From a virus: a stretch of DNA of 21,239 nt. The stretch lies in IMG/VR virus record IMGVR_UViG_3300028156_000007, positions 1 to 21,239 of that record; one strand, given 5' to 3'. Positions 3,050 through 20,429 of the stretch are shown piece by piece (the first letter of the stretch is position 1; every line of letters begins with the position of its first letter). The notes beneath the pieces were generated by a model. It had not been told where the DNA came from. It made no database searches and saw nothing but the letters and a program-made list of their open reading frames with translations. Made by a program: the position numbers and the translations under genes.

Positions 3050-3140
3050 TGTATCATTTTGATTTTCACTTAAGCGATATCCATATACAGGCATTTCTGT
3101 GATAAAATGGGTTGTTTTTATAATGGTGGGGAGGAATGAA

Positions 3141-3971
3141 ATGTCTGAAATGTCGGTTTACTTTTGCAAAATTGTGTATAAGCCGCAGACTACTATTTAT
3201 CAGCGGGGTTATGAACAAGATATACGAGAAGTATTGAATCCAGATAGAACTATATCCCGGTATGGCAGAACATGGCGGATTTCCAAACCAATAGAATATA
3301 AAGAGAATTATTATGTTGGTAAACTTGGATTCATGTCGTTAGCATCAGAGAAGAAAACATACTACGACGAAAAACAAAAGGATTTTATCGAGCAAGCAAT
3401 TAATTCAAAACAAGGGCATTATGTTCATTGGGTAATAGATTTATCAACACACCTAATAGCTTTCGATACAAAACCCCCAGACATTAGATATTATTCTTTT
3501 ATAGGTGCTTTTAAAGATTTATTAGATTTGTATCCTGATTACAATCTGACTGTGGAGAAAATTCTAGAATCATCAAAATTTTATGAATGGGCTAAAACGG
3601 TTGATAGAATTACTGAATTCACGGCTAATTTACGTGCTCCTAATCCGAATTTTGAAAGTCGACCCAAAATTATCATTGATTTATTAAAAGATACTAATGC
3701 TGACTTTGCTAAAATACGGATTAGTAAAGAAAAGGGGTCTGGGGAATCACTAAATACCGAAAATACCATAAAAGATTTAGTGAAATATGGTGAGGATGGA
3801 TATTCTACAATAGTTGCACGTGGAATGTTAAAAACAGGCAAATCAAAAGAATATGATTCAAAAAGAGAAGTGCCTACTGATAGAGTTGACATCCCAAGTG
3901 ATGCGACTAAAGAAAAGGTATGGGATTATATTATTGAAACGCTAAAGAGGTTCGAAAATGAGCGGCAATAA
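3141..3971 (+). CDS. Uncharacterised AT-rich cassette protein, 276 aa
   Basis: I do not recognise this family with confidence. It is a soluble-looking, Lys/Tyr-rich protein with no signal peptide or membrane segment. Conserved-looking blocks include RYGRTWRISKPIEY, GKLGF, HYVHWVIDLSTHLIAFDTKP, FTANLRAPNPNFESRP, DTNADFAKIRISKEKGS and VKYGEDGYSTIVARG. I chose the ATG at 3141 because GGGGAGG at 3128-3134 lies 6 bases upstream; an upstream ATG at 3099 has no ribosome binding site. The 3' end overlaps the next gene by 14 bases, and that gene encodes a four-helix membrane protein. A cytosolic sensor plus membrane partner of about these sizes is how the lambda RexA/RexB exclusion pair is built, but I see no sequence evidence for that homology. 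Base composition is clearly more AT-rich than that of the flanking phage genes, suggesting a separately acquired cargo gene. Confidence 0.75.
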   Translation: MSEMSVYFCKIVYKPQTTIYQRGYEQDIREVLNPDRTISRYGRTWRISKPIEYKENYYVGKLGFMSLASEKKTYYDEKQKDFIEQAINSKQGHYVHWVIDLSTHLIAFDTKPPDIRYYSFIGAFKDLLDLYPDYNLTVEKILESSKFYEWAKTVDRITEFTANLRAPNPNFESRPKIIIDLLKDTNADFAKIRISKEKGSGESLNTENTIKDLVKYGEDGYSTIVARGMLKTGKSKEYDSKREVPTDRVDIPSDATKEKVWDYIIETLKRFENERQ

Positions 3972-4458
3972 TAAAATAATGGCCGGCTGGTTTGGCAAGA
4001 CGATAAAAGACTGGGCGATCTGGATAACCTGCATAATTTCATTGGCTATAGCCTTGTTCGGAGACGAAGGAGTATTACGTTGTGTAAAAGGCGATGTTGG
4101 GTTAGCACAAATACAAATTGGCACGGCCTTGCTGGGCATTGTATTAGCCGGACTAGCCATATTAGTTATATTTCTTGATGAAAAATATATAGCGATATTG
4201 GAAAAAGTTCCGCCTGGGTTTGATGCAGATTTGTGGCCGTTCAAATATACTGCACTTATAGCTATTTTTTGTGCTGTTTTTGGCATGGCACTTATTATTA
4301 TTGGTTATCCTCCCACTTGGTTATTGCGGTTGACTTATTGGCTGTCGTTATGGAGTTTCTCTTATCTGTTATGGGTTCTTTTCGATCTGATCAAGTTCGT
4401 TGCGGGACACGCTAAAGCACGCGTGACTATGATCCGGAAGAATAAGGACCCTAAATAA
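3958..4458 (+). CDS. Four-helix membrane protein, partner of preceding gene
   Basis: A 166-residue integral membrane protein with four predicted helices at about 18-35, 54-73, 96-116 and 122-146. It ends in a basic tail (residues about 150-166). A hydrophilic stretch KYIAILEKVPPGFDADLWPF separates helices 2 and 3. Its ATG lies inside the last codons of the preceding gene (14-base overlap), so the two are almost certainly translated as a pair. Neither belongs to the structural operon. The arrangement suits a cargo function such as superinfection exclusion or abortive infection, with this protein as the membrane effector. That is an inference from architecture only; the family is not recognised. 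Confidence 0.75.
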   Translation: MSGNNKIMAGWFGKTIKDWAIWITCIISLAIALFGDEGVLRCVKGDVGLAQIQIGTALLGIVLAGLAILVIFLDEKYIAILEKVPPGFDADLWPFKYTALIAIFCAVFGMALIIIGYPPTWLLRLTYWLSLWSFSYLLWVLFDLIKFVAGHAKARVTMIRKNKDPK

Positions 4459-16420: not shown

Positions 16421-18127
16421 ATGGCCTGGCTGACTGGCTGGACTTATAGAAAAGCTATTGTAATCGCTCATACCGATGACGGGGCTCAGACCAATTATCA
16501 ACTTAAATTGTTGGTAGGTGAGAGTTCTGGTGCAAGCGGTGAGCAGGTCGATTGTGGGGGTCATGTCGTCTCTGATTTTGACGACCTGCGCTTTACCACT
16601 TCGGACGGCTCTACGCTCTGCGATTATTGGATTGAGAGTATTACAGGTTCATCCCCCAACCAATTGGCCACTGTCTGGATAGAGGTGCCCTCCATTGCAG
16701 CGCATCCCAATGATACCACGATCTATATGTACTACGGTGGCACAGAGACTGCAGTAAGCAACGGGGCAAATACCTTCCCATTTTTTGACGATTTCAATAG
16801 GGCAGATAGTTCCGATGTTGGTAATGGGTGGACTGAATATACAAATATATTTTCCATTTCTTCTAATACGTTGCAGGGAACTGCGTCGTCTGATGCTCCA
16901 GCATATCCTGGTAATTCTGTTTATAAAGGGTATACATGGTCCGGCAAGAAAATGTTAGAGGCAAGGTATAAATCATCGAGTGTCGTGTCTTACTATGTTA
17001 TGTTTGATGGTCAAGTTACTGCTACGACAATACTTGCGTGGTCATTAGGTACGTCCTCTAAGGCTTGGTATCTTGGTCCTTCCGGGTGGAACCAATCAGA
17101 CTCAATAAGTGGTTCGACGTATTACATTCTGGGCATAATGTGGGACGATAGTGCCGGCACTGGAAATTATTACATCAACCGGGCGGCAAAAGCTACGGGT
17201 ATTTCTCCGCTTTCAATTAGTGCTTCGGAAAGGGTGGCGTTCCGGGTTTATAATACCGGTCCAACTGTAAATGCAGACTGGGTGTTAATAAGGGAATACA
17301 CAGCAAATGAGCCTACCTGGAGCAGTTTCGGGAGCGAAGAGTTTCCTGGTGTCTCCCCCTCTGGCATCGCATCTACATTAGCGGTCGGCACTCCTAAAAT
17401 AACGCTGTATCTTAAATCCTCCTATATAGCCGGTACTGCTGCGTTTGGTACTCTAAAATTCACGCTTTACCTCAAGCCCTCCGGCATCGCTTCGATGTTG
17501 GATTTTGGCAATCCGGCTGTTATGCAGGGGAGCAATATCGCACCTCCAGGCATGGCTCCAACTTTGACCTTGGGTACGCCAACTTTAATTTATAACCAGG
17601 TCATAACCACCGCCCCCCGCGTCCCCGCCTCCACCTTCGGCACGCCGTCAGTCTATCAGGGAAACATCGCCGCAATAGGCGTTGCTTCCATCGCGGCCGT
17701 GGGAACGCCGACCGTTAGCCGCTTTGTCTTTCATATCATCCTTTCAGCCACTTACTCAGTGGAGGCTCCGGATGTCAACCGCACCTATGTCGTTGGCTCG
17801 GATGCTGCCGGTGCCCAGGTTTCCGGGTCCGCCATCACCCAAGCCGACGTTGATCTGGTCGGCGAGCGCATGGAGGCCCACCACAATCCCGCCATCCCCA
17901 CTGCCACCGTGGCCGCCGCGGTGGCCACCGCCCAGCTCGCGAAGGCCCGCCTGGACGGCACGCGGGCGCAGATCACCGTCGCCCCGCACTGCGGTGTAGA
18001 ATTGTGGGATGTGGTAAACGTTACGGACGACATCGCCAATCAGGCATCAAGCTACCGCGTAAGCGGTTATGTCTTGGACTTCCGGGCCGGTGTTTACCGA
18101 CACATCCTTGAGCTTTGCGCTCTCTGA
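16421..18127 (+). CDS. DUF2341 fibre protein fused to a hub-like C-terminus
   Basis: A 568-residue chimera-like protein. Residues 1-110 form a DUF2341 domain (WTYRKAIVI, TNYQ, YWIES, TIYMYYGG). Residues about 120-305 resemble a LamG-like β-sandwich (FFDDFNRADSSDVGNGW). Residues about 313-433 hold about five imperfect repeats around GIASxxAVGTPxV, known from phage fibres. Residues about 445-568 (VNRTYVVGSD, DLVGERMEAHHNPAIPTATV, PHCGVELWDVVNVTDD, YRVSGYVLDF) look like the C-terminal part of the baseplate-hub protein that appears to be missing from the gene at 13620. The last 500 bases are clearly more GC-rich than the first part. It probably mediates surface or polysaccharide binding at the tail tip. 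Confidence 0.7.
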   Translation: MAWLTGWTYRKAIVIAHTDDGAQTNYQLKLLVGESSGASGEQVDCGGHVVSDFDDLRFTTSDGSTLCDYWIESITGSSPNQLATVWIEVPSIAAHPNDTTIYMYYGGTETAVSNGANTFPFFDDFNRADSSDVGNGWTEYTNIFSISSNTLQGTASSDAPAYPGNSVYKGYTWSGKKMLEARYKSSSVVSYYVMFDGQVTATTILAWSLGTSSKAWYLGPSGWNQSDSISGSTYYILGIMWDDSAGTGNYYINRAAKATGISPLSISASERVAFRVYNTGPTVNADWVLIREYTANEPTWSSFGSEEFPGVSPSGIASTLAVGTPKITLYLKSSYIAGTAAFGTLKFTLYLKPSGIASMLDFGNPAVMQGSNIAPPGMAPTLTLGTPTLIYNQVITTAPRVPASTFGTPSVYQGNIAAIGVASIAAVGTPTVSRFVFHIILSATYSVEAPDVNRTYVVGSDAAGAQVSGSAITQADVDLVGERMEAHHNPAIPTATVAAAVATAQLAKARLDGTRAQITVAPHCGVELWDVVNVTDDIANQASSYRVSGYVLDFRAGVYRHILELCAL

Positions 18128-18338: not shown

Positions 18339-18950
18339 CTATGCGGCATGTACTAGTGCAAATTTGGTGCCATCATAAATCACGTTAACATCTTGACCTC
18401 GAGCAAAACCACAATCGTGAACTGGATCGGTAAGTTTGAGTTCTTTTACGTTTAGTTTTATTGGTGCGCATATATACGCATGCCTATCTTGATCACCATA
18501 AAAACGAAAATTCGCATCATAAAGCACGCCACAAATTTCTAATTTAATATCAATCAATCCACGTTTTTTAAATTTCCGTAATTCATCAAACAGCGGAATT
18601 TTATCTGCCTCAGATGTATTTATACGTATTTCTGTTCTTGGTTTAATAGGACCGCCATTATAAACGTAACCAATTTTATTATTCGGATAAACAATAGTTA
18701 CCGGTATTTGGATTGGGGAATATATTGTCTGCGAAAGCGGATTGGTATCACTATTTGAATCTTTGTTTTGCATGTTATCGCTTTGAATGGGGGATGAAAT
18801 GCTATCCGAATATACTTCTGATAAGCATCTCTCAATATATTGTGAAGCAATATTGCTTGGATCTGCACCAAGTGAACCTGCTATTTTTTTTAGCTGTTGA
18901 AATTGCTTGGCAGGAAGCGAAATGGTTATCGCAACTTCATTTTTTGTCAT
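18339..18950 (-). CDS. Possible internal product: ribbon-helix-helix plus C-terminal domain, 203 aa
   Basis: Within the gene above, AAAGGAGA (18965-18958) lies seven bases before an ATG at 18950-18948 that begins MTKNEVAITISLPAK, exactly at the start of the ribbon-helix-helix module. This signal is far better than the one before the full-length start. It would give a separate 203-residue DNA-binding protein in the same frame. Whether both products are made cannot be told from sequence. The site may also be a relic of two genes that later fused. Confidence 0.4.
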   Translation of the reverse strand: MTKNEVAITISLPAKQFQQLKKIAGSLGADPSNIASQYIERCLSEVYSDSISSPIQSDNMQNKDSNSDTNPLSQTIYSPIQIPVTIVYPNNKIGYVYNGGPIKPRTEIRINTSEADKIPLFDELRKFKKRGLIDIKLEICGVLYDANFRFYGDQDRHAYICAPIKLNVKELKLTDPVHDCGFARGQDVNVIYDGTKFALVHAA

Positions 18951-19760
18951 AATATTATCTCCTTTAGCCAATAACATTTCTTTGCTGGGTGATCTTGTAG
19001 TGACACTTAAATCATTATCACGTTTATTAAATAGAAAGCATTCAATGCTATCCGGTTCGCAATTTAATGCATTCGCCCAATCATGCATTGCATATATGTA
19101 ATGCATGTAACCCTCTGGATATTCCTTGAGACTCGCTTTTAACTTCCTTTTGCCCTGATATATAACCGCATCTGCGAAAGTGGCAACCAAATTAGTATTC
19201 TCCAATGTATCTATGACATGAAAACATTTGATAACATTCGTGTCCAAAATAACAGGCTGCGTCTTTAAATGGACGGCACGCCCTATGAAATAAAATAGCT
19301 TGGTAAAATAGGCTGATCTGCACCCGGGCAAGTTAAATGTTTCATATGCTTTAAATATTTCATTCTTTGAAACTAAGTCTACGGTATCATCTAATATTGC
19401 CTTAAATTTACTATACCCATACCCTTTTTTTACATATTCACAACCTCTAAGTTGGTTAAAACTCCATCCCCACATCATGACTGCTAAATAGAATATTCTG
19501 ACATCAGGCCATGTACCTGTTGCTGCCTTTGATGCTAAATTTGTTAGATTGGAACGCGTAAGTTGCGCGATATTAGTATCATTAGGATCCGTATAGCAAT
19601 TTAAAATGGACGTCAGGTCCGCCGAAATATCAGTTGAGTCTGCAGAAGAATCGAGCCATTTCTGAATATCAATATATGCCGGTTTTTCAATATGAAGTGA
19701 AGTTAAAATCGCGTTGCTATTTTGCAGCAAATATTTTGGCAGTGGAATCCTATCGCTCAT
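18339..19760 (-). CDS. OGG-fold glycosylase-like domain fused to a ribbon-helix-helix module
   Basis: A 473-residue protein of unusual make-up. Residues about 84-240 resemble the 8-oxoguanine DNA glycosylase (OGG) fold family: MMWGWSFNQLRGCEYVKKGY then YSKFKAILDD, a helix-hairpin-helix-like LPGCRSAYFTKLFYFIG and an acidic QPVILDTNVIKCF. Residues about 273-318 are a CopG-like ribbon-helix-helix (VAITISLPAKQFQQLKKIAG...IERCLSEV). Residues about 345-473 form an unrecognised β-rich domain. The gene is AT-rich, reads against the late operon and lies at the element's edge, the usual place for cargo or defence genes. A strong internal ribosome binding site precedes Met271. The ATG at 19760 has no good Shine-Dalgarno sequence. 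The domain calls are from memory of family patterns and need a profile search. Confidence 0.6.
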   Translation of the reverse strand: MSDRIPLPKYLLQNSNAILTSLHIEKPAYIDIQKWLDSSADSTDISADLTSILNCYTDPNDTNIAQLTRSNLTNLASKAATGTWPDVRIFYLAVMMWGWSFNQLRGCEYVKKGYGYSKFKAILDDTVDLVSKNEIFKAYETFNLPGCRSAYFTKLFYFIGRAVHLKTQPVILDTNVIKCFHVIDTLENTNLVATFADAVIYQGKRKLKASLKEYPEGYMHYIYAMHDWANALNCEPDSIECFLFNKRDNDLSVTTRSPSKEMLLAKGDNIMTKNEVAITISLPAKQFQQLKKIAGSLGADPSNIASQYIERCLSEVYSDSISSPIQSDNMQNKDSNSDTNPLSQTIYSPIQIPVTIVYPNNKIGYVYNGGPIKPRTEIRINTSEADKIPLFDELRKFKKRGLIDIKLEICGVLYDANFRFYGDQDRHAYICAPIKLNVKELKLTDPVHDCGFARGQDVNVIYDGTKFALVHAA

Positions 19761-19803: not shown

Positions 19804-19953
19804 CTATATGCGTACCACTTTTTGAGTCAGTCCAACATGAATAGACGCCGTCGCATATGGTTGATAGTCGATGGCAATATGTGGTTGTTGTCGGGTATAT
19901 TCTTTCCTCCAACCTTCAATCAATATTCTGGCTTCAGCGACTTCGTTTCCAGA
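19804..19953 (-). pseudogene. Remnant of IS3-like transposase C-terminus
   Basis: The minus-strand frame from 19953 to the TAG at 19804 encodes SGNEVA, then EARILIEGWRKEYTRQQPH, then IAIDYQPYATASIHVGLT. This matches the end of IS3/IS481-type transposases (EARxLIExWRxxYNxxRPHxALGYxPPA). The upstream part of the transposase is absent: the MarR gene ends only three bases away. Only about 50 residues remain. Confidence 0.6.
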
Positions 19954-19955
19954 CT

Positions 19956-20429
19956 TTAAGGCCAGGGGAGCGCCTTGGGGCTGAGGCGGAGCTGTTTCAT
20001 GCCCGCCTCTTTGAGTGCCGTCAGCGTTGCCTTGAGCTCTCTCTGCTGCACCGAGGTCAGCCTCGAAAGGACGTGCGTTGTGCCTTCCAGTTTCATCGCT
20101 TTCTTTAGAGCAATTTCGCCCTTGGCGGTCAGGGTTATACGTATGTAGTTCTTGCGGTCCATGTTCTTGGTCCTCTTGATCAGACCGCGTGCTTCCATGC
20201 GCATGAGGATGCCGGATACGGAATGAGGTTCACGCAACATCATCCTGGTGATTTTGGCAGGTGTGACGCCCTCGCCCATGGCGTCCACCAGGAAGAGGAT
20301 CTCCGCGGCGGTGGCCGACAGGTTCTGGGGCATGAGTTCCCTCTCCCTCACCTTAACGAATATGTCCGCGACCTGCATGATCTGCGCGATAAGGGTATAT
20401 TCCCTATCCGCCTTTATTTGCTGTGCCAA
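19956..20429 (-). CDS. MarR-family transcriptional regulator
   Basis: A 157-residue winged helix-turn-helix regulator. The dimerisation helix is at the N-terminus (REYTLIAQIMQVADIFVKVR). The DNA-binding region spans about 35-105, with recognition helix REPHSVSGILMRMEARG and wing KRTKNMDRKNYIRITLT. The C-terminal helices complete the dimer interface. The DRKNYIRITLTAKG segment is the conserved MarR wing. The start is a TTG at 20429, chosen for GGAGG six bases upstream. A palindromic operator candidate lies 28 bases before it, so autoregulation is likely. The last residues (LSPKALPWP) may be altered by the IS remnant that abuts the stop codon. The ligand and targets are unknown. Confidence 0.85.
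   Translation of the reverse strand: MAQQIKADREYTLIAQIMQVADIFVKVRERELMPQNLSATAAEILFLVDAMGEGVTPAKITRMMLREPHSVSGILMRMEARGLIKRTKNMDRKNYIRITLTAKGEIALKKAMKLEGTTHVLSRLTSVQQRELKATLTALKEAGMKQLRLSPKALPWP

What the first reader, a model, noticed from the sequence alone, without database searches (positions are those of the whole stretch)
18339..19760. OGG-fold glycosylase-like module fused to a ribbon-helix-helix protein, with a ribosome binding site at the joint
The AT-rich edge gene encodes a probable DNA-glycosylase-fold domain followed by a CopG-like DNA-binding module and an unknown C-terminal domain. AAAGGAGA sits seven bases before Met271, where the ribbon-helix-helix begins. The gene could make a long enzyme-like protein and a short DNA-binding protein from one frame, a compact version of a toxin/antitoxin or effector/repressor pair. 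OGG-fold proteins of this family are known to me mainly as stand-alone proteins, often uncharacterised.
Basis: partly seen in the sequence, partly recalled or inferred. Interest (0 to 1): 0.72.

Follow-up and report, generated by a model that had tools for sequence, protein, structure and literature searches.

The report
Phage-borne base-removing enzyme with extra tail
A dormant bacterial virus carries a gene whose first half resembles enzymes that cut damaged or modified bases out of DNA and whose second half is a one-off attachment with a possible DNA-binding start; relatives of the first half lie beside known anti-virus genes, so it is probably defence cargo, but the idea that the gene makes two proteins is unproven.

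Summary
The 473-aa ORF is real but lies on the MINUS strand (19760→18339) of a prophage in IMG/VR. Residues 51-244 match Pfam PF21790 'OGG' (84 bits, cut-off 27). AAAGGAGA seven bases before Met271 is also real. The ribbon-helix-helix (RHH) call is only weakly supported: no Pfam RHH_1 match, and a low-confidence model. Nothing else found encodes the C-terminal 200 residues except an identical copy. The internal ribosome site is strong, but about 10% of comparable ORFs hold one, and the only other fused relatives checked lack one. The two-protein idea is therefore open, not supported. New here: PF21790 genes recur beside defence genes (inside hsdS/hsdR operons, and next to AbaSI/PvuRts1I-like, Cas4-like, GIY-YIG and TIR/AbiEii genes). 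Close relatives in Vibrio and Moritella share 80% of residues 1-270, then carry unrelated C-termini. In sibling prophages the same slot holds other genes. Best reading: defence-type OGG-fold glycosylase cargo with an appended, probably DNA-binding, module. New variant of a known, uncharacterised family.

The parts
18339..19760 (-). 473-aa fused ORF (start ATG 19760-19758, stop ends at 18339); no Shine-Dalgarno before Met1
19011..19760 (-). OGG-like (PF21790) glycosylase-fold domain, residues ~1-250; PF21790 match 51-244; family-invariant R69, W97, T153, K154, I171, D173, E240
18951..19010 (-). linker, residues 251-270, low model confidence
18958..18965 (-). AAAGGAGA, strong Shine-Dalgarno-like site 7 nt before Met271 codon
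18948..18950 (-). Met271 codon, possible internal start; forms an ATGA overlap with a stop in another frame
18801..18950 (-). ribbon-helix-helix-like segment, residues 271-320 (weak evidence)
18342..18800 (-). C-terminal part of unknown fold, residues 321-473, no relatives found
16421..18127 (+). last conserved tail gene of the prophage; the OGG gene lies in the variable slot just behind it
19956..20429 (-). MarR-family regulator upstream on the same strand; a 78% identical copy sits beside other phage packaging genes (L100)

Best explanation
The gene is prophage cargo: a member of the OGG-like family PF21790 (helix-hairpin-helix glycosylase-type fold) with an extra C-terminal module that probably contacts DNA or makes the protein dimerise. 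Proposed action: the domain flips a modified or damaged base out of invading DNA and breaks its glycosidic bond using the invariant Asp173 and Lys154, leaving abasic sites or nicks that block a competing phage or plasmid; the appended module adds DNA binding, multimerisation or self-regulation. The gene mainly makes the long protein. The ribosome site at Met271 is most likely a relic of two coupled genes that became fused, or an optional second start. Shown: family membership, fold resemblance, invariant K/D, defence genes beside many relatives, exchange of C-terminal modules, variable cargo slot. Inferred: enzyme activity, substrate, defence role here, function of the C-terminus, origin of the ribosome site.
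For: PF21790 at 84 bits. AlphaFold model of residues 1-250, with nearly all of the 197 residues at pLDDT >= 90. Structural alignment to mouse, human and Clostridium OGG1: Z 5.0-5.5, 145-158 residues, rmsd 4.2-4.8, model 6-250 on the OGG1 catalytic domain. K154 and D173 invariant in 25 family members, 19 residues apart; OGG1 K249-D268 (from memory) has the same spacing. Relatives lie between hsdS and hsdR (L074), in hsdS-OGG-TmtA-HsdR (L075), beside AbaSI/PvuRts1I-like (L008, L088), Cas4-like (L014), GIY-YIG (L015), DUF2779 (L089) and TIR plus AbiEii (L073) genes. Vibrio and Moritella homologues: 80% identical over 1-270, then unrelated C-termini. Sibling prophages carry other genes in the slot, and one sibling has a Z1/DnaJ cargo.
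Against: Foldseek gives no significant PDB match, and VIA-align Z about 5 is low; its top row is the queuosine-salvage enzyme DUF2419, also Z 5.5. A comparison of the family profile with E. coli Nth is not significant. With the LPG hairpin aligned without a gap, K154 falls four residues after the OGG1 lysine, so its catalytic role is uncertain. The neighbourhood survey had no matched control. Not all relatives are beside defence genes (e.g. L016, L017, L087). No activity has been measured.
Confidence: 0.45

Rival explanations
1. One frame, two products: ribosomes start at Met1 (long glycosylase) and at Met271 (about 200-residue DNA-binding protein). The short form pairs with or represses the long form, like an effector/repressor or toxin/antitoxin pair, or like Cas11 made from inside cas8.
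For: Strong ribosome site (-8.8 kcal/mol) at Met271 against none at Met1 (+1.2); position at the module boundary; internal starts for Cas11 are described in type I-B, I-C and I-D systems (PMC13199841).
Against: About 10% of AT-rich ORFs have such a site by chance; synonymous shuffle 13%. The Vibrio and Photobacterium fused relatives have none at their joint. RHH not confirmed. The paper cited reports that such a site in T. maritima cas8b1 did not work in E. coli.
Confidence: 0.22
2. Recent fusion: a stand-alone OGG gene and a translationally coupled downstream gene with its own start at Met271 were joined when the OGG stop was lost; the ribosome site is a relic and now does little.
For: Most relatives end within 30 residues of the domain. 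In another frame a TGA overlaps the Met271 ATG (ATGA), with an open stretch of about 20 codons before it. The gene has an IS3-like transposase remnant directly upstream and low GC, as recently acquired DNA.
Against: ATGA arises by chance whenever codon 272 starts with A. No unfused pair was found. Vibrio and Photobacterium show that a C-terminal module can be a lasting part of a protein of this family.
Confidence: 0.35
3. Not defence: a lesion-repair, nucleoside-processing or non-catalytic DNA-binding protein of the HhH class that merely travels in mobile regions.
For: The structural row tied with OGG1 is a queuosine-salvage enzyme, DUF2419. Some relatives lie among housekeeping-like genes (L016, L017, L087). 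Actinomycete tandem copies have lost the lysine in the second copy.
Against: Patchy distribution (2/400 Chloroflexota, 1/369 Gammaproteobacteria, 6/345 Bacteroidia, 20/148 Actinomycetes) and repeated placement inside restriction operons.
Confidence: 0.25

Closest known systems
Pfam PF21790 OGG (putative 8-oxoguanine DNA glycosylase OGG-like protein)
   Same: Residues 51-244 match well over the cut-off; same invariant R, W, TK, I-D and E positions
   Different: Here ~220 further residues follow the domain; most members are stand-alone
OGG1 / HhH-GPD superfamily 8-oxoguanine glycosylases (human, mouse, Clostridium; AGOG)
   Same: Moderate structural alignment over the catalytic domain (Z ~5, 145-158 residues); invariant Lys and Asp 19 apart
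   Different: About 10% identity, no sequence-level match, lysine offset by one helical turn in the hairpin, no N-terminal OGG1 domain
Brig1 / Brig3 anti-phage DNA glycosylases (PMC11078745, PMC13160076)
   Same: Works-like comparison: DNA glycosylase genes, Brig1 homologues in defence islands, that remove modified bases of phage DNA
   Different: Neither paper mentions an OGG-like family in the passages read; no homology was tested; substrate unknown here
DUF2419 queuosine-salvage enzyme (PDB 7uk3)
   Same: Top structural row, Z 5.5 over 190 residues
   Different: rmsd 6.6, 10% identity; cell metabolism rather than DNA
Internal in-frame start of Cas11 within cas8
   Same: A ribosome site and Met inside a long gene at a domain boundary
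   Different: Expression of a short product is not shown here and no homologue keeps the site

Membership tests
PF21790 OGG-like | Profile score above the curated cut-off | tested here: met
   84.3 bits against 27, residues 51-244
PF21790 OGG-like | Invariant motif residues (R69, W97, T153-K154, I171-x-D173, E240) | tested here: met
   Invariant in 25 of 25 aligned members including this one
HhH-GPD / OGG1 superfamily | Glycosylase fold of the catalytic domain | tested here: inconclusive
   OGG1 entries fill the top of the structural list at Z 5.0-5.5, but Foldseek finds nothing significant and DUF2419 ties
HhH-GPD / OGG1 superfamily | Catalytic Asp and, for bifunctional enzymes, Lys in the hairpin | tested here: inconclusive
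   Lys and Asp invariant with 19 spacing, but Lys lies four residues later than in OGG1 when the hairpin is aligned ungapped (OGG1 numbering from memory)
HhH-GPD / OGG1 superfamily | Base excision activity | not testable with these tools
   needs an assay
Ribbon-helix-helix (CopG/MetJ/Arc) | Profile match to RHH_1 PF01402 | tested here: not met
   no match at E<=10 in the window, 14 of 14 control genomes match
Ribbon-helix-helix (CopG/MetJ/Arc) | Strand-helix-helix fold, swapped dimer | tested here: inconclusive
   helices 284-297 and 301-319 at pLDDT ~60; AvtR (4hv0), an RHH protein by recall, Z 4.6 over 79 residues; single-sequence model pLDDT 34
Type II toxin-antitoxin | Two adjacent co-expressed products, one toxic and one neutralising | not testable with these tools
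   one ORF; second product only hypothetical
Known anti-phage systems (PADLOC 2.0.0) | Match to a catalogued defence protein | tested here: not met
   no PADLOC match for the ORF or its halves

The most novel reading that the evidence does not exclude
A single phage gene encodes, in one frame, both a defence glycosylase and a separately started DNA-binding regulator that controls or neutralises it: a one-gene effector/repressor module of a kind not, to my knowledge, described for DNA glycosylases.
Probability: 0.15. Interest if true: 0.72.

Novelty: new variant of a known kind. Interest (0 to 1): 0.42.

Why it matters
PF21790 has no paper in the full-text library searched, yet its genes sit inside restriction operons and beside modification-dependent nucleases. 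If these are base-removing defence enzymes, they could add another fold class to the recently found anti-phage glycosylases. The swappable C-terminal modules might show how such enzymes are re-targeted. The phage-borne fusion is one test case.

Tried and rejected
Fusion in L017 (match reported to residue 341): rejected, the extension runs past a stop codon and is chance. Unfused pair or other carriers of the C-terminal module: none in plasmids, phages, viral contigs or 393 class-level genomes; the class search had no positive control, so absence is weak. Attachment-site repeat of the tRNA-Val end in the window: none found, so the right prophage end is probably not in the window. Promoter directly before Met1: only chance-level sites. 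PHROGs and NCBIfam: no useful match. Profile search of solved sequences with the 25-member alignment: no HhH match. Profile comparison with E. coli Nth: aligns the hairpin but not significantly. Lower start-site RNA structure at Met271: not unusual. Foldseek against viral models: nothing significant. C-terminal module folded alone: uninformative. Brig1 papers checked for an OGG link: no 'OGG' in one, only a mention of human OGG1 in the other.

Full report
WHAT IS THERE. The finding's coordinates hold a 473-codon ORF on the minus strand, 19760 down to 18339. The window is a whole IMG/VR record of 21,239 bases. It starts with tRNA-Val (24-99) and a tyrosine integrase (170-1348, minus), then a D5-like helicase, cargo genes, terminase, portal, capsid and tail genes, ending with the tail gene 16421-18127 (structural labels partly from reading the sequences). 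The ORF follows that tail gene, on the other strand, in a stretch of 35-39% GC inside a ~55% GC element. Upstream on the same strand lie a MarR gene and, between them, a remnant resembling the end of an IS3-type transposase (rve_3, 22.3 bits, below the 26.5 cut-off).

THE FIRST PART. Residues 51-244 match Pfam PF21790 at 84 bits against a cut-off of 27. Distant relatives from plasmids (Mycolicibacterium, Gordonia, Vibrio, Rhodococcus) score on the same family. A genome scan gave 17 more, the closest a Dehalococcoidia MAG at 33% identity. Across 25 members R69, W97, T153, K154, I171, D173 and E240 never vary. The AlphaFold model made with 18 sequences has 197 residues at pLDDT >= 90, nearly all in 1-250. 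Foldseek finds nothing significant, but the structural realignment puts mouse, human and Clostridium OGG1 and archaeal AGOG at the top (Z 4.9-5.5, model 6-250 on OGG1 115-325), tied with the DUF2419 queuosine-salvage enzyme. Catalysis is inferred: the K-D spacing of 19 equals OGG1's (OGG1 positions from memory), but the lysine is one helical turn later in an ungapped hairpin alignment.

THE SECOND PART. Residues 271-473 match nothing in Pfam, PHROGs, PADLOC or NCBIfam, nothing in plasmids or phages, nothing in 393 genomes of the class, and only the identical copy in viral contigs. The RHH idea rests on a strand-helix-helix pattern: helices 284-297 and 301-319 at pLDDT about 60, AvtR (an RHH protein by recall) at Z 4.6, and a home-made profile scoring 7.4 bits against at most 4.3 in 1000 shuffles, though ranking only third of 290 proteins. 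Pfam RHH_1 does not match even at E 10. I call it plausible, not shown.

THE JOINT. AAAGGAGA-TAATATT-ATG is exact. Pairing energy at Met271 is -8.8 kcal/mol, within the range of true starts in this phage; Met1 has no site. In other window genes 2 of 73 internal ATGs are as strong; in AT-rich background ORFs 9 of 462, touching 8 of 81 ORFs; synonymous shuffling gives 13%. The site is therefore not rare, though its place at the boundary is suggestive. In another frame a TGA overlaps the ATG (ATGA), as in coupled genes. This fits a fusion of two neighbours but is also likely by chance. The fused Vibrio and Photobacterium relatives have no such site at their joint.

THE FAMILY IS MODULAR. Of 51 family ORFs with a full domain (some near-duplicates), six have 100 or more residues after it, all different from this one as far as read. 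The Vibrio and Moritella proteins are 80% identical over residues 1-270 and unrelated after that; Vibrio and Photobacterium are 77% identical throughout. C-terminal modules are thus exchanged.

CONTEXT. Extended neighbourhoods and family scans show PF21790 genes between hsdS and hsdR (L074), in hsdS-OGG-TmtA-HsdR order (L075), beside an AbaSI/PvuRts1I-like modification-dependent nuclease and a WYL regulator (L008, L088), a Cas4-like PD-(D/E)XK nuclease (L014), GIY-YIG (L015), DUF2779 (L089), TIR plus AbiEii (L073). Some are not obviously in defence loci (L016, L017, L087), and I had no matched control, so this is strong suggestion rather than proof. Prevalence is patchy: 2/400 Chloroflexota, 1/369 Gammaproteobacteria, 6/345 Bacteroidia, 20/148 Actinomycetes over the cut-off (each sample includes the genome the search was centred on, which was known to match).

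THE SLOT. Sibling prophages share the tail end, but where sequence continues they carry other genes behind it: a sigma-70 region-4 protein in L011/L098, a zinc-ribbon-like protein in L095, a probable methyltransferase in L097 (labels for L095 and L097 from reading). A sibling with a 95% identical integrase (L005) carries a Z1 ATPase and a DnaJ protein between helicase and terminase. The MarR gene recurs in a different phage-like contig (L100). The OGG gene is therefore most likely inside the prophage, as one-off cargo. The identical copy in another IMG/VR record spans 13,164 bases at 100% and may be the same population.

JUDGEMENT. An OGG-fold, probably defence-type glycosylase with an appended module: new variant of a known, uncharacterised kind. 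Two products from one frame cannot be excluded but are not supported beyond the ribosome site.

Noticed in passing
window 19807-19980 (minus): Remnant resembling the C-terminus of an IS3-type transposase (rve_3, 22.3 bits, under cut-off) between the MarR gene and the OGG gene; possible vehicle of the insertion.
   Followed up: partly
L008 4719-5915, L027 5722-6906, L026 5629-6825: Vibrio and Moritella OGG proteins are ~80% identical over residues 1-270 and then have unrelated C-terminal modules: module swapping within a conserved gene cluster (WYL, unknown, AbaSI-like, OGG).
   Followed up: yes
L075 4634-12499: hsdS - OGG - TmtA - HsdR gene order in a Bacteroidia genome; OGG embedded in a type I restriction-type operon.
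   Followed up: partly
L056, L060, L059, L062: Actinomycete tandem OGG pairs in which the second copy has lost the invariant lysine (SR or SC in place of SK): possible active/inactive partner pairs.
   Followed up: no
L005 2275-6949: Sibling prophage cargo: Z1-domain ATPase, small unknown gene and DnaJ-domain protein between helicase and terminase, a probable conflict system.
   Followed up: partly
window 3099-4458: Two AT-rich cargo genes (290 aa unknown; 166 aa membrane protein) overlapping by a few bases, unmatched in Pfam, PADLOC and NCBIfam where scanned; candidate two-gene system.
   Followed up: no
L095 4430-5050 (minus): Repeated zinc-ribbon-like units (EWHPxKNxxLTPxxV...WWxCxKGHxW) in the same cargo slot of a sibling prophage.
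   Followed up: no
L100 3992-4474: A 78% identical MarR gene next to an unrelated terminase and portal: a phage-borne MarR regulator shared across different phages.
   Followed up: partly
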